A DNA stretch of 49,553 bases from Thermoleophilaceae bacterium (GCA_030447905.1 JAUJNZ010000003.1:330234-379786); one strand, 5' to 3'; positions 31,080 to 44,628 are shown, numbered from the stretch's first letter. Notes: generated by a model from the letters alone, not told the origin. Made by a program: numbers and translations.

Positions 31080-31913
31080 ATGGTGGTGACTGGCCCGGCG
31101 GGATCGGTCAGTTCAAGTACCCTGGCCGGCTCTACCCTGGAGGGCAGAGAGGTCACCCCGACGAGTCTCCTAAAGAGCTTCACCAAGCGAAGGGCACACG
31201 CCTGCCCGGTCTGCGAGTCCCGCTTCGCAGGGTTCCAGCCGGCTCATAACCGTCCGGCCGCGAAATGCCCGGGGTGTGGTTCGCTCGAACGCCACCGCCT
31301 CGCCTGGCTCTTCCTGCAGCGGGAAACCGACCTCTTCGCGGGCCGACCGCTCAGCCTGCTCCACGCAGCGCCGGAGCCGATGCTGAAGAAGCGATTCCGC
31401 GCGTTGAACCACCTCGAGTACCTGAGCATCGACATCGAGTCTCCGATCGCCGACGAGAAGATGGATATGACGCAGCTCGACCTCGACGATGAGACCTTCG
31501 ACTGCACCTATTGCAGCCACGTGCTCGAGCACATACCCGACGACCGGGCCGCAATGGGTGAGCTCTACCGGATCCTGCGCCCGGGAGGGTGGGGGCTGCT
31601 CCTGGTCCCGATCCTCCGGGAGACGACGTACGAGGATCCCGCGATCGTCGACCCGGCCGATCGCCTCGAGGCTTTCGGCCAAGCCGATCATGTGCGGAAG
31701 TACGGGCGTGACTTCGCCGACCGTCTCCAGTCGGTGGGCTTCTCCGTCGAGGAGATCCCCTACGCGGCAACGCTGGATCGCCAAACCAGCGCGCGGTACG
31801 GCCTCGATGTCAAAGAGCTCGTGCACTTCTGCCGGAAGCCGAGGGCCGGCGGCGAGGAGCCTGGAGATGCCTCCGGAGTGCTCGAATCGCTGCGGAGCCC
31901 TGTCCGACCATGA
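31080..31913 (+). CDS. SAM methyltransferase with N-terminal zinc ribbon
   Basis: 277 residues from ATG 31080 (other starts possible within the first ~25 codons). A zinc ribbon with four cysteines (ACPVCESRF and KCPGCGSLERHR) leads into a class I methyltransferase: LSIDIESP, MDMTQLDLDDETFDCTYCSH, VLEHIPDDRAAMGELYRILRPGG. The usual Gly-rich SAM motif I is replaced by LLHAAPEPMLKKRF, as in this sub-family. Stop overlaps the next start (ATGA). Confidence 0.8.
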   Translation: MVVTGPAGSVSSSTLAGSTLEGREVTPTSLLKSFTKRRAHACPVCESRFAGFQPAHNRPAAKCPGCGSLERHRLAWLFLQRETDLFAGRPLSLLHAAPEPMLKKRFRALNHLEYLSIDIESPIADEKMDMTQLDLDDETFDCTYCSHVLEHIPDDRAAMGELYRILRPGGWGLLLVPILRETTYEDPAIVDPADRLEAFGQADHVRKYGRDFADRLQSVGFSVEEIPYAATLDRQTSARYGLDVKELVHFCRKPRAGGEEPGDASGVLESLRSPVRP

Positions 31914-34900
31914 GGGCATCGGTCCGCGCTATGGCGCGCCCGCGACGTCGCGCCCTCGTCGTGCTCGGCACGCACCGAAGCGACACGTCGGCGGCTGCGC
32001 GGGTCTTCAGCCTGCTCGGGGGTGACCTGCCGCGCAACTCGAGGCCGAGGGAGGACAGCGATCCTTCCGATTCTTGGGAGCCGGCGGCGCTCGTCGCCGC
32101 CCACGACGCGCTGCTGGCCGAGTTCGATTCGGGCTGGGACGATCCCTGTCCGCTCCCTCCGGGCTGGTTCGAGGCCGAGGCCGCACGCCGTGCGCAGGAG
32201 ACGATGGCGGATCTCGTCGAGCAGGAGTTCGGGGACTCCCCGCTTTTGGTGCTCAAGGATCCGCGGATCTCTCGCACCGTGCCCCTCTGGACGTCGGTGC
32301 TCCGTCGGGTCGGCGCGGAGCCCGGCTTCGTGCTCGCCTTCAGAAACCCGCGGGAGGTGGCCGGATCGCTGGGGGCCCGAGACGGGATCTCCCTCCCGCG
32401 GTCTCTTCTTCTCTGGCTTCGCTACGTGCTCGAGGCCGAGCGGGATACTCGCACGGAGCGGCGGGTCTTCCTTTCCTACGACGCGCTGCTCACCGACTGG
32501 CGTCAGGCCGCTGCCCGCGTCGCCCGTGCGCTCGACCTCGAGTGGCCACTCGAGGTCGGCGACGTCGCCGCTGACGTCGACGCCTTCATCAACGCCGCCA
32601 ACCGTCACCCCACGGTCGCTGCGGAGGACGTCGCGGTCCAGCCAGAACTCGAGGCGTGGGTCGAGAAGGTATACGCCGCACTCGGCGAAGCCGAACTCGA
32701 CGGCGACTCGCTCCCAGACGTGGCCGACGGCGTCCGCGCCGAGCTCGATCGCGCCGACCTTACCTTCGCGCCGGTCGTGGGGGAGACGTCCGCGCGCGGC
32801 GGACAGGTGGAGGAGAGACTTCAGACGGTCCGTGAGGAGCTCTACGAGAGCGAGCGAAAGCTCGATGAGAGCGAGCGGCGCGAGCAGCGCTCAAAGGAAG
32901 AGCTCGCCCAAGCCCGGGAGCAGGCCGGCGACGCCGAGGAGCGAGCCGCGGGGCTCGCGGCCGAGCTCGCCTTCGTCACACGCCCCCGTTCGCTTCGCTG
33001 GCCGCGTGTTCCTCGCTGGCGGTCGCTGGCCCAACTCGGGTTGTGGTTGCTGCCTCCGTCTCGGGCAGGGCTTCGCAACGTGCGAGCCTATCTCGACCTG
33101 AAGAGGGCGCGGGTCTTCGATGCCGACTACTACCTCGAGAACAACCCCGACGTTGGCCGGCGCTCCGACCCCCTCATTCACTACTTGAAGCACGGGTGGT
33201 TCGAGCAGCGCGATCCGAATCCATGGTTCAGCACCTCGTACTACCTCTCGGCGAACGAGGACGTCGCCGAGGCGCAGGTCAACCCGCTCGTCCACTACGT
33301 ACGCCAAGGACGCCGAGGCCAACGAGCCACGCGTCCGCCCGCCCGACTCGACTCGGTGCCCACCTTCGGTCCCCGATCGCTCACGAAACCCGTCAGGCCC
33401 AAGCGGGTGCGAGCCGAGGCCGTCACGCCCGAGCTGCTCTCCGCGGCGCTCGAGCGCCTGACCGCCGCCCCGCTCTCCGTCTCCGTCATCGTCCCGACCT
33501 ACAACCACGCGTCGACGGTCGCCCGTGCGCTGCGATCGGTGCTCGCACAGTCCTACTCCCCGCTGGAGATCCTGGTCTCGGACGACGGGAGCACCGACGA
33601 GACCCAGGAGGTCCTCGAGCAGCAATTCGGCTCCGAGCTCCGAGACGGCCGCATCCGCGTCCTCCGCAACCCGCACCGCGGGGTCAGCGCCGCTCGCAAC
33701 GCGGGCCTTGCCGTAGCCCGCGGCGATGTCGTCGCCTACCTCGACTCGGACAACGAATGGGATCCGGACTACCTCCTGTTGACGGTCGACGCGCTCGGGC
33801 GCCATCCCGAGGCGGGAACCGCTTACGCCGGGCTGCGCGTGGTCGGAGACCCTCGCGGCGACTTCGCTCGTCTCGCCGCCTTCGACCGGGAGGCGCTCTT
33901 CTACGGCAACTTCATCGACATGAACGTCTTCGTGCACCGGCGGTGGGTCGCGGAGCAGCTCGGCGGGTTCGACGAGGAGCTCACCCGACTGGTGGACTGG
34001 GACCTGATCGTCCGCTACACGCGGCTCTACCCCCCGATCCTCGCCCCGTTCCACCTCGTGACCTACCACACCGGCGTCGCGGGGGAGACGATTTCCTCGC
34101 GGGAGGCGCTCGATAAGAACCGGGGGCGCGTGCTGGACAAGCACCGGCATGAGCTGGCTTGGCGCGGCCTCGAGCCGGTGCGCATCGGCTATGTCCTCTG
34201 GGACTGGCCGGCGCTCTCGCAGACGTTCGTCGTCGACGAGATTCGGTGCCTGCTCGAGCGGGGCTATGACGTCAAGGTTTACTTTCGGACCGACCCCGAT
34301 GCTGCGGCGATCATCGACTTCCCCGTGGACGCCGTTCGCGTCTCAGGGCCGAAGGAGCTGGCCCAGCAGGCCCGTCGGGACGAGCGCACGATCCTGCACT
34401 CGCACTTCGCCTACCCGGCCGTGACACGGCTCACCTTCCCTGCCGCGGTTCAGGCCGGGACCCCGTTCACGTTCATGCCCCACGCAGTGGACATCTTCAA
34501 CTATGAGAACGAGGCGAGAAACCGGATCGACGAGATCACCCAGCACCCGCTGTGCCAGCGGGTCTTCGTCCACGGCGACTTCCACCGCAACTACCTGATC
34601 GAGCGCGGGGTGCCCGCGCCGAAGCTGGCGCCCACGCTTCAGGCCCTTCCGTCGTGGATAGCCGGCGGCGACGCCTCGGACGCGGTCGAGCGCAGGCTCC
34701 GCGGGCGTCGCCGCGTGGTCACGACGATCGCGCGCTTCATCGAGAAAAAGGGGATCGAAGACCTGATCAGGGCCGCGGATCTGCTTCGAGACGAAGACGT
34801 CGAAGTGCGGATCTACGGATACGGCCCGCTCGAGGACCGCTATCGCGACCTGGTTGAAAAGCTCCGCATCGACAACGTCCGCCTCTTGGGCTCGCTCGAG

Positions 34901-36634
34901 GACGCAGAGGCCGTCCGGGCTGCCTACGCGGAAGCCGACGTCTTCGCCCTGCCGTGCACCCGCGCCGAGAACGGGGACATGGACGGCCTGCCGACGGTCC
35001 TCCTCGAGGCGATGGCGCTCGGCGTCCCCGTGGTGACGACGGCCGTCTCAGGAATCCCCGCGATCGTGCGCGACGGTGTCTCAGGAATCCTCGTCCCGGA
35101 CCGTGACCCGCCCGCGCTTGCCGCGGGTCTGCGAACAGCGCTCGAGACGCCCGCCCAGCGGCTTCGGCGGCTGATCCGAAACGCCCAGGCCACCGTCGCT
35201 GAGCACGCCGGCGTCGACAGGACCGTGGACACTCTTCTCGACGCTTGGGCGCGTCCCCCGGTCGACATCGCGCTCGTCACCTACTCGCGGGACGATCAGC
35301 CCGGCCGCCGCGAGACCGAGGAGGTCCTGCGGAGGGTCGTCGAGAAGACGACGACGCCCTACACGCTGACGATCGTCGACAACGCAAGCGACGCGGAGTT
35401 CGTGCAGGAGTTGCGCTCGTTCGCAGAGGGTCGCGACAACGTCCGGGTCCTCGCCCTCCCCGAGAACCGCTTCTGGGGCCCGGGGTTCAACGTCGCCCTC
35501 GAGCACGGCTCGGGAGAGTTCGCCTTGTACGTCTGCAGCAACGAGGGCTTCGTGGCCAAGGTCGGGTGGGAGCGGGAGTGCCTGCAGTTCATGCGCGCAA
35601 ATCCCCGCGTCGCCCTCGGGGGACACCTCATCTCCTCCCCGGGTTTCCATGACGGCGACGGCTACCGCCGTCAGCCGTGGTTCTCGAAGTTCCGCAACCG
35701 CTGGTTTGCCAAGAAGAACCCGAAGCGGGCGTTCCACCACGTGCAGGGCGGCATCTTCGCGCTGCGGCGGGACGCATACGAAGAATCCGGGGGGTTCAGC
35801 GAGGCGGTCGCGCAGGCCGGGGCGGACGTCGAATACAGCTACTACCTCGAAAGCCGCGGCTGGGAGCTCGGCGACATCGAGCAGCTCCCCTCCGTGACGA
35901 CGAAGACTCTGCCGCCGGTGGGGGCGCTGATCGATGAGGACACGCTCGCATGCCATCCGCTGTCGCGGGAGACCGTGAGGGATCTCGACTGGACGGTGGC
36001 GATGCGGGGCCGGCGATGCAACCTCTGCGGATGGACCGGCGAGCAGTTCGTGAGCGACGGCGATGCGAACGCGTGCCCGCAGTGCGGGAGCACCCCGTTC
36101 GATCGGGCGACCTATCGCTTCCTCGCCGGGTCGAACCTCGTCTATCGCAAGCGCTCGTGCGCCGCGATCTTGGACGGGGACGCACTCGTGCCCGAGCTCA
36201 AGCGCATGTTCTCGCTCGAGCGGCACGTCGTCGCGCAAACGCCGGAGGCGACAGAGCTCGCAAACCACCTCGCAAATGGGCGCACCGCTCGGGTCGACGT
36301 TCTGATCGTCGGCCCGCTGCGGGTTGCGGCCGGCCAAGAAGGAGCGGTCGCCGCCGACATCGACCGTCTGCTCGGCCGCGACGGGACAGCTCTCCTCGCT
36401 CCGGCCGATCTCTCGTTTAGGCACGGCGATCCGGTCGAGCGCCTGCGCGTGGCCTTCGCGCGCCAGCGTCTCGGTGTCGAGGAGGTCGTGTACCGGAGCC
36501 GGGTAACCGGCTTAGAGAGTACCGACCTTCTCAGCGTGGCGCGACTTCGGCACCAACCGCCTGAGGCCGGGCCTGCGCCGCCTGCCGAGGGGCGCACTCC
36601 TGGCCAGCCAACGCTCGCGCGCGCCCGCGCTTAG
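31910..36634 (+). CDS. 1574-residue fusion: sulfotransferase-like, GT2, GT4, GT2 and zinc-ribbon domains
   Basis: Domains by residue: ~12-225 sulfotransferase-like (LGTHRSDTSAAARVFSLLGG, LKDPRISRTVPLW, LAFRNPREVAGSL); ~298-352 coiled coil; ~403-472 two repeats of the D-x-x-YY-L-x-x-N-x-D-V...HY type (FDADYYLENNPDV; STSYYLSANEDV); ~523-720 GT2 (VSVIVPTYNHASTVARAL, SDDGSTDET, AYLDSDNEWDPDY); ~758-1115 GT4 (HSHFAYPAV, RFIEKKGIEDLI, YGYGPLEDR, DGLPTVLLEAMALGVPVV); ~1118-1340 second GT2 with DxD weakened; ~1370-1392 zinc ribbon (C1370, C1373, C1389, C1392), then a methyltransferase-like remnant. The frame is unbroken. It probably builds several linkages of one glycan repeat. A 4-nt overlap couples it to the methyltransferase upstream. 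Confidence 0.85.
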   Translation: MRASVRAMARPRRRALVVLGTHRSDTSAAARVFSLLGGDLPRNSRPREDSDPSDSWEPAALVAAHDALLAEFDSGWDDPCPLPPGWFEAEAARRAQETMADLVEQEFGDSPLLVLKDPRISRTVPLWTSVLRRVGAEPGFVLAFRNPREVAGSLGARDGISLPRSLLLWLRYVLEAERDTRTERRVFLSYDALLTDWRQAAARVARALDLEWPLEVGDVAADVDAFINAANRHPTVAAEDVAVQPELEAWVEKVYAALGEAELDGDSLPDVADGVRAELDRADLTFAPVVGETSARGGQVEERLQTVREELYESERKLDESERREQRSKEELAQAREQAGDAEERAAGLAAELAFVTRPRSLRWPRVPRWRSLAQLGLWLLPPSRAGLRNVRAYLDLKRARVFDADYYLENNPDVGRRSDPLIHYLKHGWFEQRDPNPWFSTSYYLSANEDVAEAQVNPLVHYVRQGRRGQRATRPPARLDSVPTFGPRSLTKPVRPKRVRAEAVTPELLSAALERLTAAPLSVSVIVPTYNHASTVARALRSVLAQSYSPLEILVSDDGSTDETQEVLEQQFGSELRDGRIRVLRNPHRGVSAARNAGLAVARGDVVAYLDSDNEWDPDYLLLTVDALGRHPEAGTAYAGLRVVGDPRGDFARLAAFDREALFYGNFIDMNVFVHRRWVAEQLGGFDEELTRLVDWDLIVRYTRLYPPILAPFHLVTYHTGVAGETISSREALDKNRGRVLDKHRHELAWRGLEPVRIGYVLWDWPALSQTFVVDEIRCLLERGYDVKVYFRTDPDAAAIIDFPVDAVRVSGPKELAQQARRDERTILHSHFAYPAVTRLTFPAAVQAGTPFTFMPHAVDIFNYENEARNRIDEITQHPLCQRVFVHGDFHRNYLIERGVPAPKLAPTLQALPSWIAGGDASDAVERRLRGRRRVVTTIARFIEKKGIEDLIRAADLLRDEDVEVRIYGYGPLEDRYRDLVEKLRIDNVRLLGSLEDAEAVRAAYAEADVFALPCTRAENGDMDGLPTVLLEAMALGVPVVTTAVSGIPAIVRDGVSGILVPDRDPPALAAGLRTALETPAQRLRRLIRNAQATVAEHAGVDRTVDTLLDAWARPPVDIALVTYSRDDQPGRRETEEVLRRVVEKTTTPYTLTIVDNASDAEFVQELRSFAEGRDNVRVLALPENRFWGPGFNVALEHGSGEFALYVCSNEGFVAKVGWERECLQFMRANPRVALGGHLISSPGFHDGDGYRRQPWFSKFRNRWFAKKNPKRAFHHVQGGIFALRRDAYEESGGFSEAVAQAGADVEYSYYLESRGWELGDIEQLPSVTTKTLPPVGALIDEDTLACHPLSRETVRDLDWTVAMRGRRCNLCGWTGEQFVSDGDANACPQCGSTPFDRATYRFLAGSNLVYRKRSCAAILDGDALVPELKRMFSLERHVVAQTPEATELANHLANGRTARVDVLIVGPLRVAAGQEGAVAADIDRLLGRDGTALLAPADLSFRHGDPVERLRVAFARQRLGVEEVVYRSRVTGLESTDLLSVARLRHQPPEAGPAPPAEGRTPGQPTLARARA

Positions 36635-36717
36635 ACTCACCCACTTTAACCGTCACCGGCCACGGCCATGGAAACCATGCACTGAGGCCCGACGGTTCCC
36701 GCGCTCGAAGAACTAGC

Positions 36718-37566
36718 ATGGCTTTCGCCTACCTCAGAGACAGGATCAGAAGATCCTTCAAAAGGGCGGCCTCGGGCTTGCTTGCTAAGCATGGGTACCA
36801 ACTCTCTAAGCCAGGTGCTGACGTCCCTGCCACGGCTTCCCGAACCTCTCAGGTCGAGCTGGATAAGCGCGAGCTCATCGACTATGTGTTCACCAGGTGT
36901 ATTCCGCGTCCGGTCTCATTTGCGGATCTTGGGGGTGTATGGCGTGTCGAGGGCGCATATACCTTTTACGCTTTGGAGAAACATCGTGCCCAGACCGCAG
37001 TCCTCGTCGATGGAGCGCTTACCGCTGAAGTGATGGCCAAAGCAGCGGGGCATCAGCGGTTACAGTTGCTGAACGGGAATTTCGGCGCAAACTCAATCGC
37101 CGCACGGGTCAGGGGCGTCGAGGCAATCTTTCTCTTCGACGTCTTATTGCACCAAGTAGACCCCGACTGGGATGGGATTCTCGAGAAGTACGCCCCCACG
37201 GCCAACTACTTGCTGATCTACAATCAGCAATGGACGGGCGAGAAGACTGTGCGCCTGTTGGACCTGGGACGCGACGAATACTTCCGAAATACGCCGCGTG
37301 AGCCTACCGACCCCGGGTACGATGAGTTATTCGATAAATTGGACGAACCCCACCCCGAGCACGGCCGACCGTGGCGAGACATTTACAACCTCTGGCAGTG
37401 GGGAATTACAGATGCAGACCTGCTCGCTACCGCCGAGGAGTTGGGCTTCCGGCTGCAGTACTACAAAAACTGCGGACGCTTCGGGCACCTACCTAACTTC
37501 GAAAACCACGCGTTCGTCTTCAAACGCGCAGACCTGCCGGCTGGCTCAACGTCCGGAGACGCGTAG
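36718..37566 (+). CDS. Class I methyltransferase-like protein, lower GC
   Basis: 282 residues. RPVSFADLGGVWRVEGAYTFYA resembles a SAM-binding motif I, followed by AVLVDGAL, LLNGNFGAN, AIFLFDVLLHQVDPDW (motif IV position) and NYLLIYNQQW. The C-terminal part (LGFRLQYYKNCGRFG) is as in putative polysaccharide methyltransferases. GC content and codon use are visibly lower than in flanking genes (many AT-ending codons), suggesting recent acquisition. Confidence 0.7.
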   Translation: MAFAYLRDRIRRSFKRAASGLLAKHGYQLSKPGADVPATASRTSQVELDKRELIDYVFTRCIPRPVSFADLGGVWRVEGAYTFYALEKHRAQTAVLVDGALTAEVMAKAAGHQRLQLLNGNFGANSIAARVRGVEAIFLFDVLLHQVDPDWDGILEKYAPTANYLLIYNQQWTGEKTVRLLDLGRDEYFRNTPREPTDPGYDELFDKLDEPHPEHGRPWRDIYNLWQWGITDADLLATAEELGFRLQYYKNCGRFGHLPNFENHAFVFKRADLPAGSTSGDA

Positions 37567-37854
37567 GCTTCTTAGCCCTCGTGGACACCGGCGTGCGGAC
37601 GCTCGCACCGGTCGACCAGTCGCGAACCCTCGGGGCAGCGATCGCGTCCACGCCCGCCCTGGCTCAGGCTCGTCTCCGTAGCGCCACCCTGCGCGCTGGG
37701 AAGAACGCCTCCTCCAACCGGCGAGCCGAACGCGCCCGCCGAGCAACCTGAGCGCCAAACCGGCGGCCTCACGAGCGATCACTCCGCAGCTCAAGTGTTT
37801 ACTCACCAGCGACGGCTGCGGCACGACTCGCGCTGAGCTTCGTGTACGACCGGG

Positions 37855-39025
37855 CTAGCGGCCGCCCGCGAATCGACGCACAACCCGACCCAAGCGTTTC
37901 GAGATGCGTAGGGCGGCTCGGACGCGATGGTGCTGCGGAGCGTCATTATGGGCGAGTGGGCCCTCGAGCGGGCTGGTTTCGTCCGACGGCAGCCGGCGGT
38001 TGCTAATTACTTCGGCGAGCGCAGTGTGGAGTAGCGCTTGCTCGAGCGGCGAGGCGCGCGACGTCCAGAGGCTCGTCGAGAACCGAGAGATCTCCCGAAA
38101 CTCCTTCGTCCCCGACGCCCTGAATGAACGCATCGGTGTCCCACCCGAGCTCCGCGATCAGCTCGCGGTTCCCCGCTTCGTAGAGATCGTGGCAATAGCG
38201 ATCGAGGATGCGGCGCGAGCGGCAGACCTCCTCGGACTCACCAGCGTCGAGGCGCTCGGTGAGCTTCTTGACCTGACGGAGGGCACGATTGTCATGCGGC
38301 GAGTCCCAGAGTAGGCCCTTCGGCGCTCCCCGAAGCGCTGTGACCACGTCGAGCGGCAGGCCTTGGTTCTCCCATGTCGAATCCGGGGCCAGGGTCGCGT
38401 GCGGTCCGCGCAGGAAGCGGCGATCGAAGTCCGTCGCTACATTCACGTCGAGCAGGTCGCGGCGAAATGGCCTGGGAACGAAGGAAACGTCCGGCGCAAG
38501 CCGCCTGACGCTGCGGTAAGTCTCCACGTATCGCAGGGCGCACTGCTGGCTGGCGATGTAGGCCGACGGAGAAACACCAGATCGAAACCCCCACTGGCGC
38601 CAAGCGGCCTCGAGGGTCGTGTTCTGCGGGCGGACATAGTACGCGACCTGAACCTCGTGTTGGAGGGCCAGATCCTGCAGCGCGGCCAGGTAGGCGGTGT
38701 CGGGCTGACAGAAGAACGGCGCGAATGCCTCGCTTGAGAGCACGACGATCCCGTCCGACTCCACCCGCTCCTCGAGGCTGGCCGCAAACGACTCGAGGAT
38801 TTCTCCGCGGTGCTCCTTCGCCGCGACCGCGGCTAGTAGGAGTGAGGATGAGTTAGGCGAGCCCCGGACGTAGGGACGGACGCGGACGACCCTGTCCTCA
38901 GCTTGCGCAACGCAGAGCCGGATGCCGGAGTGGCTCCAGAGGTCGGCGGCATGCCGGCCGAGCCAGGCGCTTACTGAGGACGAGCCGGCCTTCGGCATCC
39001 CCGCGTGGATGACGATCTTTCCCAT
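37855..39025 (-). CDS. Sulfotransferase-like protein, copy 1, frameshifted near its 3' end
   Basis: Close paralogue of 39800-40903. Starts MGKIVIHAGMPKAGSSSVSAWL, where MPKAGSSS is the PAPS 5'-phosphosulfate loop. Shares VVLSSEAFAPFF, VAYYVRPQNTTLEAAWRQWGF, FVPRPFRRDLLD and LYEAGNRELIAELGWDTDAF. After LSVLDE one extra G (38070-38071 on the plus strand) shifts the frame; without it LWTSRASPLEQALLHTALAEV continues as in copy 2, to a stop at 37855 (389 aa). As read, the protein ends early at 38003. Could be decay of a duplicate or a sequence error. Confidence 0.8.
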
Positions 39026-39038
39026 GCTTTCCCGCGCG

Positions 39039-39044
39039 AGTCTA
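39039..39044 (-). promoter_or_regulatory. Candidate -10 box, sulfotransferase copy 1
   Basis: TAGACT 13 nt before the ATG; the surrounding GAGTCTAGA is shared with copy 2. Confidence 0.4.
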
Positions 39045-39079
39045 GACTGGAGCCCGCATTCCGGCTGAGGAGGAGACGA

Positions 39080-39689
39080 TTGGAAGACAACATCCAATAC
39101 TGGATCGATCGGCACCAAAGGCTCGCGAACAAGCTCGCTTCGGTAGGTCATGTCGGAAAGTCCGAGGAGGAGAACACAAAGCTCTACGCATGGAAGAAGC
39201 GATGGGTGTTCGATGTTCTCAGGACGCTCGGGCTGACGGACCTCAGGGACGAGCCTTCTCGACGCCGGGTGTGGGAATGGAATGGTGAGCGAATTCTTCT
39301 GGGCGCTGGGTGCAGACGTCTCGGGCGTCGATGTCTCAGAGGACGCGCTGCGCGAGGCGGCTCTGCGTGTACCGCTCGGAACGTTCCTTCGAAGCCCATT
39401 GACGACGTTTGAGCTACAACGCGAGTATGACATCGTGTTTTGCGCAGATGTTCTCTACCATATAATCGACAACACCGCCTGGAAGCAAGTGCTCGAGCGG
39501 CTCGTACGCCATACTTCCCCTGGCGGCTGTATTTTCGTAATAGAGCATCTCAAGCCGCGTGAGGACTCGCCCGCTAGCCACGTCCACCACCGGACCCTAC
39601 CGGTATACCAACATGCGCTACAGGAGATGGGCCTCATCGAACAGCCAGTGGAGAAGCCGCAGATGACCCTGGTGTGGCGACGGCCGTGA
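39080..39689 (+). CDS. Class I SAM methyltransferase, frameshifted
   Basis: TTG start with GAGGAGGAG 4-5 nt upstream. First frame: DNIQYWIDRHQRLANKLASV, then WVFDVLRTLGLTDLRDEP; near 39256 one extra base shifts to the frame LDAGCGNGMVSEFFWALGAD, which is SAM motif I, followed by VSGVDVSEDAL, DIVFCADVLYHIID and SPGGCIFVIEHLKP. Restored length ~202 aa. Lower GC than neighbours. Lies between the two sulfotransferase copies on the opposite strand. Confidence 0.75.
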
Positions 39690-39799
39690 TTCAGCCCGCC
39701 TTCGGCTAGGTTCGCCCTACGTATTCCGCGACATCATGGTCATGCCGCCTCCATCTCGCGCGCTCCCCATACGATGTCCGGCGGCGCGAGCGGTCGGGC

Positions 39800-40903
39800 T
39801 TAGCCCCACGATGTCCGCAGAAGTCGCCGAAGCGACTTCGCCCGCTTCCGTCCTACCGGCGCCGCCGCGGCACGCCCGGGGTCACCAACGATCTCGGCAA
39901 GCGCCTGGTGGAGAAGCGCCAGCTCCAGCGGGGAGGCGCGAGAGCTCCAGAGCTCGTCTAGGCGTGAGAGGTCTCCCGACTCTCCGGCGTGGACGCCCTG
40001 AATGAACGCATCGGTGTCCCACCCCAGCTCAGTGATGAGCTCGCGGTTTCCCGCCTCGTAGAGGTCGTGGGAGTACCGCGCGAGGATGCGGCGCGAGCAG
40101 CGCGCCTCTTCGGACTCATCCGCGTCGAGGCGCGCGGTGAGCTTCTTCACGCGCTGAAGGGCGCGGTTGTCGTGCGGGGACTCCCAGAGGAGGCCCGTGG
40201 GAGCTGCTCGGAGCGCCCGGACGACGTCGAGCGGCATACCCTGGTTCTCCCACGGCGAATCGGGGGCCACCGGCGCATCCGGTCCCCGCAGGAAGTGCCG
40301 ATCGAAGTCCGTTGCGACGTTCCCGTCGAGCAGGTCGCGGCGAAACGGCCTCGGCACGAAGCGGACGTCCGGGGCAAGTCGCCTGACGGTCCGGTACGTC
40401 TCCGGGTACCTGAGTTGCGGCTCTCGACTGGCGAGATAGGCTGACGGAAGGGAGCCGTACCGAAACCCCCACTGGCGCCATGCTGCCTCGAGGCTCGTGT
40501 TCTGCGGACGGACATAGTAGGCGACGTGGACCTCGTGTCGGGACGTCAGGTCCTGAAGCGCAGCGAGGAAGGCGGTATCCGGCCGCCAGAAGAACGGAGC
40601 GAACCCCTCGCTCGAGAGAACTACGGCCCCGTCCGACTCCGCCCGCTCGTCGAGGCTCGCCGCAAACGACTCGATGACCTCGCCGTGTTGCTCGTCAGCC
40701 GCGTCCGCAGCGAACAGGAGTGGGGCGGAGTTGGGCGATCCGCGGACGTAGGGAACGACGCTGACGACGGCGTTTCTGGCCTTTGCAACGCACAGACGGA
40801 TGCCGCTCTCGGTCCGGAGCTGGTGGGCATGCCGCGCGAGCCAGGCGCTGACCGAGGACGAGCCGGCCTTCGGCATACCCGCATGAATGACGATCTTCCC
40901 CAT
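39800..40903 (-). CDS. Sulfotransferase-like protein, copy 2 (intact)
   Basis: 367 residues, no frame break. PAPS loop HAGMPKAGSSSVSAWLARHA; VVLSSEGFAPFFWRPDTAF; YYVRPQNTSLEAAWRQWGFRY; FVPRPFRRDLLDGNVATDFD; C-terminal LEAGNREL-like helix. Roughly three quarters of residues match copy 1. Likely sulfates a sugar of the surface glycan; family assignment rests on the PAPS loop and general layout, acceptor unknown. Confidence 0.85.
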   Translation of the reverse strand: MGKIVIHAGMPKAGSSSVSAWLARHAHQLRTESGIRLCVAKARNAVVSVVPYVRGSPNSAPLLFAADAADEQHGEVIESFAASLDERAESDGAVVLSSEGFAPFFWRPDTAFLAALQDLTSRHEVHVAYYVRPQNTSLEAAWRQWGFRYGSLPSAYLASREPQLRYPETYRTVRRLAPDVRFVPRPFRRDLLDGNVATDFDRHFLRGPDAPVAPDSPWENQGMPLDVVRALRAAPTGLLWESPHDNRALQRVKKLTARLDADESEEARCSRRILARYSHDLYEAGNRELITELGWDTDAFIQGVHAGESGDLSRLDELWSSRASPLELALLHQALAEIVGDPGRAAAAPVGRKRAKSLRRLLRTSWG

Positions 40904-40915
40904 GCTGTCGCGGCG

Positions 40916-40921
40916 AGTCTA
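40916..40921 (-). promoter_or_regulatory. Candidate -10 box, sulfotransferase copy 2
   Basis: TAGACT 12 nt before the ATG at 40903, matching the box of copy 1. Confidence 0.4.
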
Positions 40922-40971
40922 GAGTTCCGTAAGCCAGAGGCATGATCGGCCGAGGTTGCAGCCGAGACGGC

Positions 40972-41384
40972 TCACGCCAGCTGCTCGGCGAGGCGGTCGA
41001 GCAAGCTCGCCAGCCCGGCCTCCGTCGCGCCCCGCATCCCGTCGGCCATCTGGATGGTCGTGTGGAAAACCATCACCGTCCGGTCGTCGCCGAGGTCGGT
41101 GAAGGTCACGGCAGTCACCGCGCCCGCGTGCGTGTCTTCCGGGGAGACTCCAGCAGCAACCGCTCCGGCGCGACCACCTCGCGGTACACCGCTGTCTGGT
41201 GGAGCTCCGAGCCGTTTTCGTCGTTGACGAGGCTCAGGCGGAATGTGCCGCCGGGCCTTACGTCCATAGTGATCGCCTCGAGCCGCGGGGTCAAGCCGGG
41301 CGGGCCCCACCATCGCGCGAGCTGCTCGGGCTCCGTCCATGCCCTCCACACCAGCTCGCGCGGGGCGTCGAGGACGCGGGTCAT
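40972..41384 (-). CDS. SRPBCC (AHSA1-like) protein, frameshifted
   Basis: Starts at the ATG of MTRVLDAPRELVWRAWTEPE with AGGAGA 5 nt before. WWGPPGLTPRLEAITMDVRPGG, then after YREVVAPERLLLESP one base is missing in the G4 run at 41141-41144; the rest (EDTHAGAVTAVTFTDLGDDR, then MADGMRGATEAGLASLLDRL) is the normal C-terminus. Restored 137 aa. Hydrophobic-cavity fold, ligand unknown. Start overlaps the stop of the ABC ATPase in its original frame (ATGA). Confidence 0.8.
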
Positions 41385-42222
41385 CGTAATCTCCTGGGCG
41401 CTGAACGCATCAGCCTTTGTTGGGCCTCTTCCGATCTCGCGCTGGTGCTGGTCGAGGCGTTCGTAGCTCCGCTCGAGGTACTCCTCCAGGACCTCCATGG
41501 TCTCGCCGTAGCGCCTGACACGTCCCCGTCCAGCCACAGCACCCTGGTCGCCATGCGGTTTATCAACCTCTCGCTGTGGCTCACCAGAACCAACGCCTCC
41601 GCCCGATCGGTGAGCTCTTCGAGCTTCTCCCGGCACTTGCGCTGGAAGCCGGCGTCGCCCACGCCCAGCACCTCATCGAGCAGCAGGATCTCCGGCTCGA
41701 GGTGCACCGCGACCGAGAACCCGAGCCGCGCGCGCATCCCCGTCGAGTACGTGAGGACCGGCGCCTCGACGAACTGGCCGAGCTCGGAGAACTCGATGAT
41801 CGCGTCGATCTCGCTCTCGATCTTCGCGCGCGAGAAGCCGAGGTAGGCGGCGTTGAGGTAGATGTTCTCCTTACCGGTTCGTTGTCGAAGCCGGTGCCGA
41901 GGGTGAGCAAGGTTGCCTCGCGCCCGAAGGTGGTCAACGCGCCTGCATCCGGAGGAAACACCCCTGCGATGACCTGAAGCAAGGTGCTCTTTCCCGATCC
42001 GTTCATGCCTACTACACCGAGCACCTCGCCGCGGCGCAGGGCGAACGTGACGCCCTCCAGCGCCCAGAACTCGTTGCGGCCGAGCGTGGCCGACCCGTCA
42101 CCGGCCGCGAGCTGGGCGAGGGTGTGGCGGAGGGTGCGCCGGCGCTTCAGCCGCAGGTCGTACTTGACGCCGAGGTCCTTGGCGACGACGGCGTAGTCTG
42201 TCAAGCCCTCGACGCTAGACAA
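41381..42222 (-). CDS. ABC transporter ATPase, polysaccharide exporter (Wzt/TagH type), frameshifted
   Basis: Energises glycan export with the permease upstream. Walker A VVGMNGSGKST, then LLTLGTGFDNE; a break near 41877; then ENIYLNAAYLGFSRAKIESE in a new frame, TYSTGMRARLGFSVAVHLEPE (signature region), Walker B ILLLDEVLGVGDAGF and the switch His in LVSHSERL. A second break near 41520 (after VLWLDGD) leads to RRYGETMEVLEEYLERSYER. The stop overlapping the next ATG is in the original frame, so a further indel probably lies between 41500 and 41390. TTG start overlapping the permease stop. Confidence 0.85.
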
Positions 42223-43071
42223 GCTTCGCGAACGACTTCTGCAAGCGCACGAAGAAGAGGTACCCGAGCACGAGCGCGACGATCGAGCCGCCGGCGACGA
42301 TCCCGAGCGGCGACCAGTCGGGCATCGAGTGCTCCATGACTATCGCTCGATAGGCGTCGAACAACGTAACGAACGGGTTCAGGTCGTACACGGGGCGGAA
42401 CTTGTCAGGCACAAACGACGCCGGATAGAGGGCTGGAGAGAGGAAGAAACCCATGCGAAAGACATAGTTCATGATCTTGGCTGCGTCGCGGAAGAAGACG
42501 TTCAGGGCGGAGATAAAAAAGGCGACCCCGGTCGTCAATGTAAGCTGCACGAGCGCGATCGGGACGACCAGTAGCGCGTACGCACTCGGATAGAACCCGA
42601 ACGGCACAGCCACGACGAGTAGGACGCCGAAGGCGAAGGCGAAGCGGGCGCCGGCGCCGATGACCTCCGAGAGAGGCAGGATGGTCTTCGGGAACCCGAC
42701 CTGGCGCATGGCCCGCTCCTTCTTCAGCGTCGCCGAGGTCGCGCCCCGCGTGGCCTTCACGAGCAGCTCCCACGAGATGATCGCGGTGAGGATGAAGACG
42801 GGGTAGTCCGGCCCCCTCGGCTGAGGATCACGCCTATGAAGACCACGTAGACCGCCATCTGGAGCAGCGGGTCCAGGACCCACCAGAAGAAGCCGAAGAC
42901 GGTGTTCGAGTTCTCGGTCCGCAGAGAAGAGGAGACGAGGAGACGCAGGAGGTGCCGGTAGCGAGCGGTGGCGTGCACCTCGCGCCGAGCGTCTCGCAAC
43001 AGCGACCGTTTCGGCGGCGCCAGGGAGGTCGAAAGGGACCGCAACCGGGGATCGGCTTGGGTGGCCGTCAT
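42215..43071 (-). CDS. ABC-2 type permease, polysaccharide exporter (Wzm/TagG type), frameshifted
   Basis: Six-helix permease. N-terminal part: RYRHLLRLLVSSSLRTENSN, VFGFFWWVLDPLLQMAVYVV, then GVILSRGG. One base is missing in the C5 run at 42812-42816; after it PDYPVFILTAIISWELLVKA, TLKKERAMRQVGFPKTILPL, VAFFISALNVFFRDAAKIMN, FFLSPALYPASFVPDKFRPV and YDLNPFVTLFDAYRAIVM follow, all typical of O-antigen/teichoic-acid exporters. Restored 285 aa. ATG overlaps the stop of the GT gene (ATGA). Confidence 0.87.
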
Positions 43072-44628
43072 CCGGCGAGCATAGCTCCGCGGGTGCCTCC
43101 CCAGGCCGCCGCGTCGCCGCTGAGATGCCGCTCAGGCGGCCGGTCTAGAGCGCGCTCGCCCTCCGACGGGCGGGGGCGGCGCAGGCGTTTTCTCAGCTCT
43201 GCGGAGTAGCGCCACGCGAACCCGCCGAGCAGGGCCTGCTCGCGCCCTAGGGTCTCCGTCCTTCCCGTCCAAGGCCGCAGCGAACGCAGGGCGAGCCACG
43301 CGATCAAGCGCTCGGGGCGGGTGAAGCGCCGCAGGGTCCGGCGCTTCGCCGCGGTCATGACCGCCCCACAGCGCATCTCCGCCACCTTTGTCGCAATGGC
43401 CGTGCCGCAGCAGTGGTGAAGTAAAGCCGACGCGTCCCGCGCGCAAGCCCCTCGGTGGCCAGCTGGGCGAGCCGGCCGCGTCCGCCCGTCCCGTCGCCGG
43501 CCGGCTCGGCGCCGCGAGGCACGCCTCGCAGCAGGCCGTTGCGCGCGCGTGCCCCAAGACCGCCTCCCCATGCTGCACGTAGTCGTACAGCGGCCGGTCG
43601 ACGTAGCCGACGTCGCCCAGTGCCATCGCCACCAGCGCGACCCAGTGGTCGTGGTAGCCGGCGCCGTAATGCGGTGGGAAGGGCAGCGCGTAGTCGAGTA
43701 CGTCGCGCGCGAACAGGGAGGCGGCGCCCGTGACGGTGTTGGCCAGAAGCAACGAGCCGAAGTTCGTGTGGTTGTTTCGGCGATAGGTCCAGTACGTGTC
43801 GGAGCGGACGCGGCCCGTGCGATCGACGATGCGCATGTCGCTGTAGACGAGCTTGGTCCCCGGCTCCATGCTCGACTCGAGCACCTCGAGCTTCTCGGGG
43901 TACCACCGATCGTCCTGGTCGCACATGGTGAGGGCTCGGCTTCTCGCGGGGCGAGCGCGAGCGCCCGCTCGAAGTTGGCGTAGAAGCCGAGCCGCTGGGC
44001 GCCGGGGGTCAGCGAGAAGCGCTCGTCGTCTGCGAGGACCTCGCCCATCTCAGCCAGGCGCGCCGACGAGGAGCCGTCGTCACCAATCACGCAAACCCAG
44101 TTCTCGTAGGTCTGTGTGCGGATCGACTCGATCTGACGCCTGAACAGGTCGAGCGGCGGCTCGTAGGTTGCCATGCAGATCGCCACAAGCGGCCTCCGTC
44201 TCCCCCCGACCGCGCCGCCCGTAACTCCCGCCGCCCGGCTTCGCGGAGGGGACGCGGGGTCGCCGACCTCCACGGAGGGGTGGAGCCTCGACGATTCCCA
44301 GCTGCCCGATGGCTTCTTCCCCGCGAGCCGTCCGGGCGCGCAGGCGAAGCTGCGCGTGCCGTGCCCGCGAGACCGCCTCGAAGGGACGATCGCCCACCAG
44401 TAGTCGCTGCCCTTGAACCCCCGCGGGCGCCGGCATTCCCGTGGCGAGCACGCGGTGGCTGCTCCCGTCGACGTACACCCGCAGATCCTCGAGGGGGCCG
44501 TCGGGATGCGAGCAGAGGCCGTCCAGGAAGATCGCCGTGCCGCCGCCGACCGGTATCCGCTCGGGGATCGGACGGATCGTGCTGACGCGAAAACAGCCTT
44601 CCACCGCACCTACCGAGCCGTCACCCAT
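43068..44628 (-). CDS. GT2 glycosyltransferase with N-terminal beta domain, several frameshifts
   Basis: N-terminal part (PERIPVGGGTAIFLDGLCSH, VYVDGSSHRVLATGMPAP, GSDYWWAIVPFEA) is a beta-sandwich-like domain also hinted in 46804-48864. Then a GT2 domain: VAICMATYEPPLDLFRRQIE, VCVIGDDGSS, then CDQDDRWYPEKLEVLESSM, TKLVYSDMRIVDRTG, and HYGAGYHDHWVALVAMALGD. C-terminal ERLIAWLALRSLRPW. At least five frame changes are needed (near 44422 in a G/C run, 44385, ~44250, ~43935, ~43560-43450). The stop overlaps the permease start, which fixes the last frame. TAGTCT lies 10 nt before the ATG. Confidence 0.75.
43078..43083 (-). promoter_or_regulatory. Candidate -10 box, permease gene
   Basis: TATGCT exactly 6 nt before the permease ATG. 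It lies inside the end of the GT gene, so it would be an internal promoter. Confidence 0.35.

What the first reader, a model, noticed from the sequence alone, without database searches (positions are those of the whole stretch)
31910..36634. Single 4.7-kb gene for a sulfotransferase-GT2-GT4-GT2-zinc-ribbon protein
Five functional units in one unbroken frame would let one polypeptide add several sugars and perhaps a sulfate to a carrier in fixed order. The coiled coil and the two YYLxxNxDV-type repeats between the first two enzymes may serve as a scaffold. I know of multi-GT fusions in surface-glycan loci but not this order.
Basis: partly seen in the sequence, partly recalled or inferred. Interest (0 to 1): 0.6.

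Follow-up and report, generated by a model that had tools for sequence, protein, structure and literature searches.

The report
Fused sulfotransferase-like and sugar-transferase glycan enzyme
A soil actinobacterium carries one 1,574-residue protein with a sulfotransferase-like domain, a coiled coil and three sugar-transferring domains, probably a polysaccharide-building machine assembled from parts also seen in distant bacteria, in which the sulfate-adding part looks broken here but intact in a close relative.

Summary
One frame (31910-36634 +, 1574 aa) encodes sulfotransferase-like (ST) - coiled coil - two FDxxYYL repeats - GT2 - GT4 - GT2 - zinc ribbon. It is not an assembly error: a second same-genus MAG carries the same frame (80% identity, all junctions to residue 1380, same two upstream genes) under purifying selection. 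In 232 genomes of the order only these two have it. The fusion is modular. Dinoroseobacter shibae plasmid protein WP_012187257.1 aligns without a break to GT4-GT2-zinc ribbon (40%) behind a different first GT. Novosphingobium has ST-coiled coil-repeats. Salipiger, Shinella and Sulfitobacter have repeat-GT2. So the module order is new, the modules are not, and transfer between Alphaproteobacteria and Thermoleophilia is likely. The layout matches single-polypeptide terminator-coiled coil-polymerase enzymes (Klebsiella WbbB, ORF6-O7), with an ST where the chain terminator sits. In the window's copy, however, the ST has lost the invariant PAPS-loop glycine (GMHRSGTS to GTHRSDTS) and the NPxG motif, both intact in the ortholog, so it probably no longer sulfates. 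Substrates and order of action are unknown. New variant of a known kind.

The parts
31910..36634 (+). Whole fusion gene, 1574 aa; possible true start at 31931
   Evidence: ortholog L009:1842-5984
31949..32554 (+). Sulfotransferase-like domain (residues 14-215), Sulfotransfer_3 type, probably inactive in this copy
   Evidence: Sub-threshold Pfam E 0.056; ortholog and Novosphingobium E 3e-5 and 3e-8; 30-40% identity to alphaproteobacterial proteins annotated sulfotransferase
31967..31990 (+). 5'-phosphosulfate-binding loop GTHRSDTS, degenerate (consensus GMHRSGTS)
   Evidence: G25D at a position invariant in 12 of 12 homologs and intact in the ortholog
32801..32947 (+). Coiled coil, residues 298-346
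   Evidence: Heptad a/d test; 10-residue length difference to the ortholog in this region
33113..33331 (+). Two FDxxYYLxxNPDV...HYxxxG repeats (residues 402-474)
   Evidence: Homologous repeats in D. shibae, Shinella, Sulfitobacter, Novosphingobium and Salipiger glycan proteins
33470..34144 (+). First GT2 domain (residues 521-745), DSD motif at 612-614
   Evidence: Pfam PF00535; chondroitin synthase GT2 is the best PDB match, E 2.5e-27
34178..35239 (+). GT4 domain (residues 757-1110)
   Evidence: Pfam PF00534/PF13692/PF13439; omega 0.16 against the ortholog
35240..35914 (+). Second GT2 domain (residues 1111-1335), non-canonical SNE in place of the DxD-type NND/NSD
   Evidence: Pfam PF00535 E 1.6e-10 on the piece; omega 0.18; motif comparison
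36011..36109 (+). Zinc ribbon CNLC...CPQC (residues 1368-1400)
   Evidence: Zn_ribbon_8 E 0.0013 on the piece; same cysteines in D. shibae; hhalign to zinc-ribbon methyltransferases 97%
36110..36574 (+). Probable degenerate methyltransferase-like domain (residues 1401-1555)
   Evidence: hhalign A3 vs A2 over 129 columns; D. shibae counterpart 94.5% and P 4.5e-4 without the ribbon; weak for the window alone
31080..31913 (+). Upstream zinc-ribbon class I methyltransferase, ATGA overlap with the fusion; start uncertain
   Evidence: Pfam Methyltransf_11 E 6.5e-12; 42-47% identity to plasmid-borne methyltransferases; syntenic in the second MAG

Best explanation
It is a single-polypeptide glycan assembly enzyme of the terminator - coiled coil - polymerase type. 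Three C-terminal glycosyltransferase units (GT2, GT4, GT2) build a surface polysaccharide or oligosaccharide repeat on a lipid carrier. The YYL repeats and coiled coil hold these units at a set distance from an N-terminal sulfotransferase that, in the ancestral and sister form, would cap or decorate the chain with sulfate from PAPS. The zinc ribbon plus degenerate methyltransferase-like C-terminus is a binding or docking module, perhaps for the intact zinc-ribbon methyltransferase encoded just upstream and overlapping its start codon. Shown: the domains, their order, the conserved fusion, purifying selection, and loss of conserved ST residues in this copy. Inferred: that the three GTs act on one glycan, that the coiled coil spaces ST from the GTs, that the sister ST is active, and that the window's ST is dead and the protein keeps only its GT functions.
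For: Domains. Same fusion in a second MAG with omega 0.16-0.18 in GT4 and GT2b and 0.33 overall. The GT4-GT2-zinc ribbon block is fused in a D. shibae plasmid polysaccharide locus with pyruvyl transferases, GalE, sulfotransferases and a coiled-coil + YYL-repeat gene beside it. ST-coiled coil and ST-coiled coil-repeat proteins lie in alphaproteobacterial polysaccharide loci. The window has dTDP-rhamnose epimerase, further GT2s, methyltransferases, ABC exporter genes and two more ST-like genes within 15 kb. Literature parallel: WbbB and ORF6-O7 carry terminator, coiled coil and GTs in one polypeptide (PMC11231755); WsaE has a methyltransferase cap domain plus two GTs (PMC2943079).
Against: The window's ST lacks the PAPS-loop glycine and NPxG residues, so a terminator role cannot apply to this copy as it stands. 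The coiled coil is short (about 7 heptads) for a ruler. The nearby Wzt-like ATPase shows no recognisable carbohydrate-binding domain and looks frameshifted. No substrate or product evidence; AlphaFold on one sequence gave no usable model. The second GT2 lacks a canonical DxD.
Confidence: 0.5

Rival explanations
1. A modular side-chain or repeat-unit synthase with no terminator or ruler: the three GTs add consecutive sugars, the ST (when active) decorates internal sugars, and coiled coil and repeats only oligomerise or localise the enzyme.
For: ST homologs occur as separate proteins in polysaccharide loci beside glycosyltransferase, GalE or UDP-galactopyranose mutase genes, not always with ABC exporters. 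The coiled coil is short and fast-evolving (omega 0.83). The YYL repeats also occur in proteins without ST.
Against: The ST-coiled coil-(repeats) block recurs, which fits a spacing role; ABC exporter genes lie 5 kb away in the window.
Confidence: 0.33
2. A decaying gene: the ST is already dead, neighbouring exporter and GT genes look frameshifted, and the fusion is a relic on its way out in this lineage.
For: ST motif losses in the window only; apparent frameshifts in the neighbouring Wzt-like and GT2 genes.
Against: The 4.7-kb frame is intact, and GT4 and GT2b are strongly constrained (omega 0.16-0.18). The neighbouring frameshifts could be assembly errors.
Confidence: 0.12
3. The frame artificially joins separate genes (assembly or sequencing error), as in the reader's own refutation.
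For: Every unit has stand-alone or differently fused relatives.
Against: The independently assembled same-genus MAG has the same joins over 1380 residues with the same two upstream genes; D. shibae has the same GT4-GT2-zinc ribbon join on a complete plasmid.
Confidence: 0.02

Closest known systems
Dinoroseobacter shibae pDSHI02 glycosyltransferase WP_012187257.1 (1302 aa)
   Same: GT4-GT2-zinc ribbon aligned without a break at 40% identity over residues 757-1414, same C-terminal layout, two YYL repeats, polysaccharide locus
   Different: First GT is GT4, not GT2; no sulfotransferase or coiled coil in the same chain (coiled coil + repeat and ST are neighbouring genes)
Novosphingobium sp. P6W WP_162792492.1 (1359 aa, annotated sulfotransferase)
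   Same: N-terminal Sulfotransfer_3, long coiled coil, then two FDxxYYL repeats
   Different: ST motifs intact; no recognised GT unit after the repeats
Klebsiella pneumoniae WbbB (O12) and ORF6-O7
   Same: One polypeptide with an N-terminal terminator, coiled coil and C-terminal GT modules (PMC11231755)
   Different: Terminators are a Kdo-transferase or methyltransferase-kinase, not a sulfotransferase; two GT modules rather than three; no zinc ribbon or YYL repeats mentioned in the passages read
WsaE of Geobacillus stearothermophilus
   Same: One protein with an N-terminal modifying/capping enzyme and two GT domains (PMC2943079)
   Different: Methyl cap rather than sulfate; different domains

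Membership tests
Terminator - coiled coil - polymerase glycan enzymes (WbbB / ORF6-O7 kind) | Catalytic capping domain at the distal (N-terminal) end of a coiled coil | tested here: inconclusive
   ST domain then coiled coil present, but capping is unproven and the ST is degenerate in the window
Terminator - coiled coil - polymerase glycan enzymes (WbbB / ORF6-O7 kind) | GT modules C-terminal to the coiled coil in the same chain | tested here: met
   GT2, GT4, GT2
Terminator - coiled coil - polymerase glycan enzymes (WbbB / ORF6-O7 kind) | ABC-transporter-dependent locus | tested here: inconclusive
   ABC2_membrane and ABC_tran genes 5-6 kb away on the other strand, apparently frameshifted
Terminator - coiled coil - polymerase glycan enzymes (WbbB / ORF6-O7 kind) | Cap at the non-reducing end and coiled-coil length setting chain length | not testable with these tools
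   Needs glycan structure and biochemistry
Sulfotransfer_3 sulfotransferases | PAPS loop GxxRSGTS, NPxGxxE, KDPR and RxPxxVxxSL motifs | tested here: not met
   KDPR and RxPxxVxxSL kept; loop glycine and NPxG lost in the window, all kept in the ortholog. Homologous to the family, probably not an active member
GT2 (both units) | GT-A nucleotide-sugar domain with DxD-type acid and C-terminal catalytic acid | tested here: met
   First unit DSD and DWD; second unit has SNE and DVE, an unusual variant that keeps an acidic residue (E) there, as does D. shibae
GT4 | GT-B fold with Glycos_transf_1 domain and E/D-x7-E | tested here: met
   DGLPTVLLE in the window and DGIPTTLME in D. shibae
Zinc-ribbon class I methyltransferases (C-terminal unit) | Zinc ribbon followed by SAM-binding domain with LHxAPEP and DIE-type motifs | tested here: not met
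   Ribbon met; SAM motifs absent in window and D. shibae; distant profile similarity only

The most novel reading that the evidence does not exclude
The protein family is a sulfate-capping polymerase: a sulfotransferase acts as chain terminator at the end of a coiled-coil ruler within one polypeptide that also makes the chain. No such enzyme turned up in the papers searched here. The window lineage has secondarily lost capping while its sister keeps it, a natural active/inactive pair.
Probability: 0.2. Interest if true: 0.7.

Novelty: new variant of a known kind. Interest (0 to 1): 0.45.

Why it matters
It shows a glycan-assembly protein put together from exchangeable blocks (ST-coiled coil-repeats, repeat-GT2, GT4-GT2-zinc ribbon) shared between Alphaproteobacteria plasmids and soil Thermoleophilia. 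It suggests sulfotransferases as a further class of capping enzyme in terminator-ruler-polymerase proteins, and offers two close orthologs that differ in predicted sulfation for a direct test. Sulfated polysaccharides are thinly documented in Actinomycetota (my own knowledge, not checked).

Tried and rejected
Assembly-error reading: rejected by the second MAG and D. shibae. Phage origin: viral-contig scans found no relative; the best phage-collection match, with ST and GT2 stretches, is an UNVERIFIED Pseudomonas phage Y4 record with separate ORFs, not pursued. PDB search of the C-terminal 214 aa: no hit; of the ST piece: no meaningful hit. The idea that the C-terminus is a plain zinc ribbon was rejected in favour of ribbon plus degenerate methyltransferase-like domain, with moderate support only; pairwise shuffles of the post-ribbon part alone were mixed or weak.

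Full report
Observation. The frame 31910-36634 + is open for 1574 codons, has coding-type GC3 of 0.86, and a stop-free run of this length is not expected by chance (about 1e-13 at this GC). Pfam gives GT2, GT4 and GT2 above threshold. The sulfotransferase (ST) and zinc-ribbon units fall below Pfam thresholds in this copy, but are supported by homologs: Sulfotransfer_3 scores 3e-5 in the ortholog and 3e-8 in Novosphingobium, and the four cysteines of the ribbon recur in D. shibae. The gene starts in an ATGA overlap with an upstream zinc-ribbon methyltransferase.

The fusion is real. A second MAG of the same genus (Thermoleophilaceae bacterium MGR_bin71, JACCTJ010000160.1; L009, L051) encodes the same frame from ST to the zinc ribbon, 80% identical, cut only by the contig end at residue 1380, with the same upstream methyltransferase and the same glycosyl-hydrolase-like gene before it. 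dN/dS is 0.16 in GT4, 0.18 in GT2b, 0.40 in GT2a, 0.37 in ST, 0.33 in the repeats, and near neutral only in the coiled coil and the linker at 473-520. This is what a single multi-domain protein under selection looks like.

Distribution. In the 232 genomes of the order that were searched, the GT4-GT2-zinc ribbon stretch beyond GT4 is matched only in these two genomes among the listed matches; the others end with the GT4 domain. N-terminal ST matches at E <= 1e-10 occur in 19 of 232 genomes, only the sister being strong. The other two same-genus genomes show no such locus, though they are 87-88% complete. The C-terminal piece finds only weak GT2 matches in about 700 genomes of class and phylum. 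The strongest outside relative is in another phylum: D. shibae plasmid pDSHI02 protein WP_012187257.1, 40% identical over residues 757-1414 without a break. Together with the ST and repeat-GT2 relatives on alphaproteobacterial plasmids (30-44%), this points to transfer between phyla or through unsampled intermediates. The phylum comparison is one-sided: beyond one pattern scan of genome contigs, only plasmids, phages and viral contigs could be searched outside Actinomycetota. GC falls to 0.64 just downstream.

Anatomy by comparison. The protein can be written as three blocks that occur fused elsewhere: ST-coiled coil-repeats (Novosphingobium P6W; ST followed by a coiled-coil stretch in Cereibacter, Rhodobacter, Phaeobacter and Sphingobium proteins), repeats-GT2 (Shinella, Sulfitobacter, Salipiger), and GT4-GT2-zinc ribbon-C-terminal domain (D. 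shibae). In D. shibae a separate coiled-coil gene ending in one YYL repeat and two sulfotransferase-type genes flank the GT gene, i.e. nearly the same set of parts unfused.

The C-terminus. After the ribbon, both the window protein and D. shibae carry 150-170 residues. A two-sequence profile of ribbon plus C-terminus matches zinc-ribbon methyltransferases (including the window's own upstream gene) at 97% probability over 129 columns, D. shibae alone at 94.5%, and D. shibae without the ribbon at P 4.5e-4 over the SHVLEH...LRPGG region. The window's post-ribbon part alone does not match and pairwise shuffles are mixed. SAM motifs (LHxAPEP, DIE) are missing. I therefore call it a probable degenerate methyltransferase-like domain (moderate confidence).

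The sulfotransferase is probably dead in this copy. Among 39 columns conserved in at least 80% of 12 homologs, the window departs at 8 and the ortholog at 3, all three shared with the window. Window-only losses are M21T, G25D (PAPS loop), N51D, G54D and E101D; G25, N51 and G54 are invariant in all 12 homologs. The 3'-phosphate side (KDPR, RxPxxVxxSL) is kept. The ortholog keeps all of these. This is inference from sequence; no activity was measured.

Mechanism. The order ST - coiled coil - GT modules parallels proteins in which a chain-terminating enzyme sits at the far end of a coiled-coil ruler and the polymerase GTs at the other: WbbB of K. pneumoniae O12 and ORF6 of O7 in one polypeptide, WbdD/WbdA in two (PMC11231755), and the methyl-capping WsaE (PMC2943079). 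The window also holds ABC exporter genes, GT2 genes, methyltransferases, a dTDP-4-dehydrorhamnose 3,5-epimerase and two further ST-like genes. My preferred reading is a glycan polymerase with an ST in the terminator position, active in the sister and lost here. The rival is a repeat-unit synthase with decorating ST and no ruler. The short coiled coil and the absence of a clear Wzt carbohydrate-binding domain weaken the ruler reading.

Novelty. Domain families, blocks and the general layout are known; the full order was found only in this genus, and an ST in the terminator place was not found in the papers searched. New variant of a known kind.

Noticed in passing
38003-39433 and 39800-40903 (-): Two tandem sulfotransferase-like genes (GMPKAGSSS P-loop), 76% identical over 330 aa, with no Pfam hit: a duplication in the same locus.
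   Followed up: partly
41520-42883 (-): Wzt-like ABC ATPase read in three frames in succession (apparently two frameshifts) next to a Wzm-like permease: pseudogene or assembly error.
   Followed up: partly
43068-44609 (-): GT2 gene whose C-terminal translation turns to Arg/Ser-rich sequence, suggesting another frameshift.
   Followed up: no
36000-41000: GC falls from 0.72 to 0.64 in the glycan locus, suggesting horizontal acquisition.
   Followed up: no
36718-37566 (+): Gene directly downstream of the fusion, 282 aa, no Pfam hit; looks like a SAM-methyltransferase relative by eye.
   Followed up: no
L107 (OQ572406.1 Pseudomonas phage Y4, UNVERIFIED): Phage record carries separate ORFs similar to the ST and GT2 units; possibly bacterial DNA in the record.
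   Followed up: no
L118:2983-4863 (Shinella sp. HZN7): A zinc-ribbon methyltransferase of the upstream-gene family within a 626-aa protein, i.e. itself fused to something else beside a glycosyltransferase gene.
   Followed up: no
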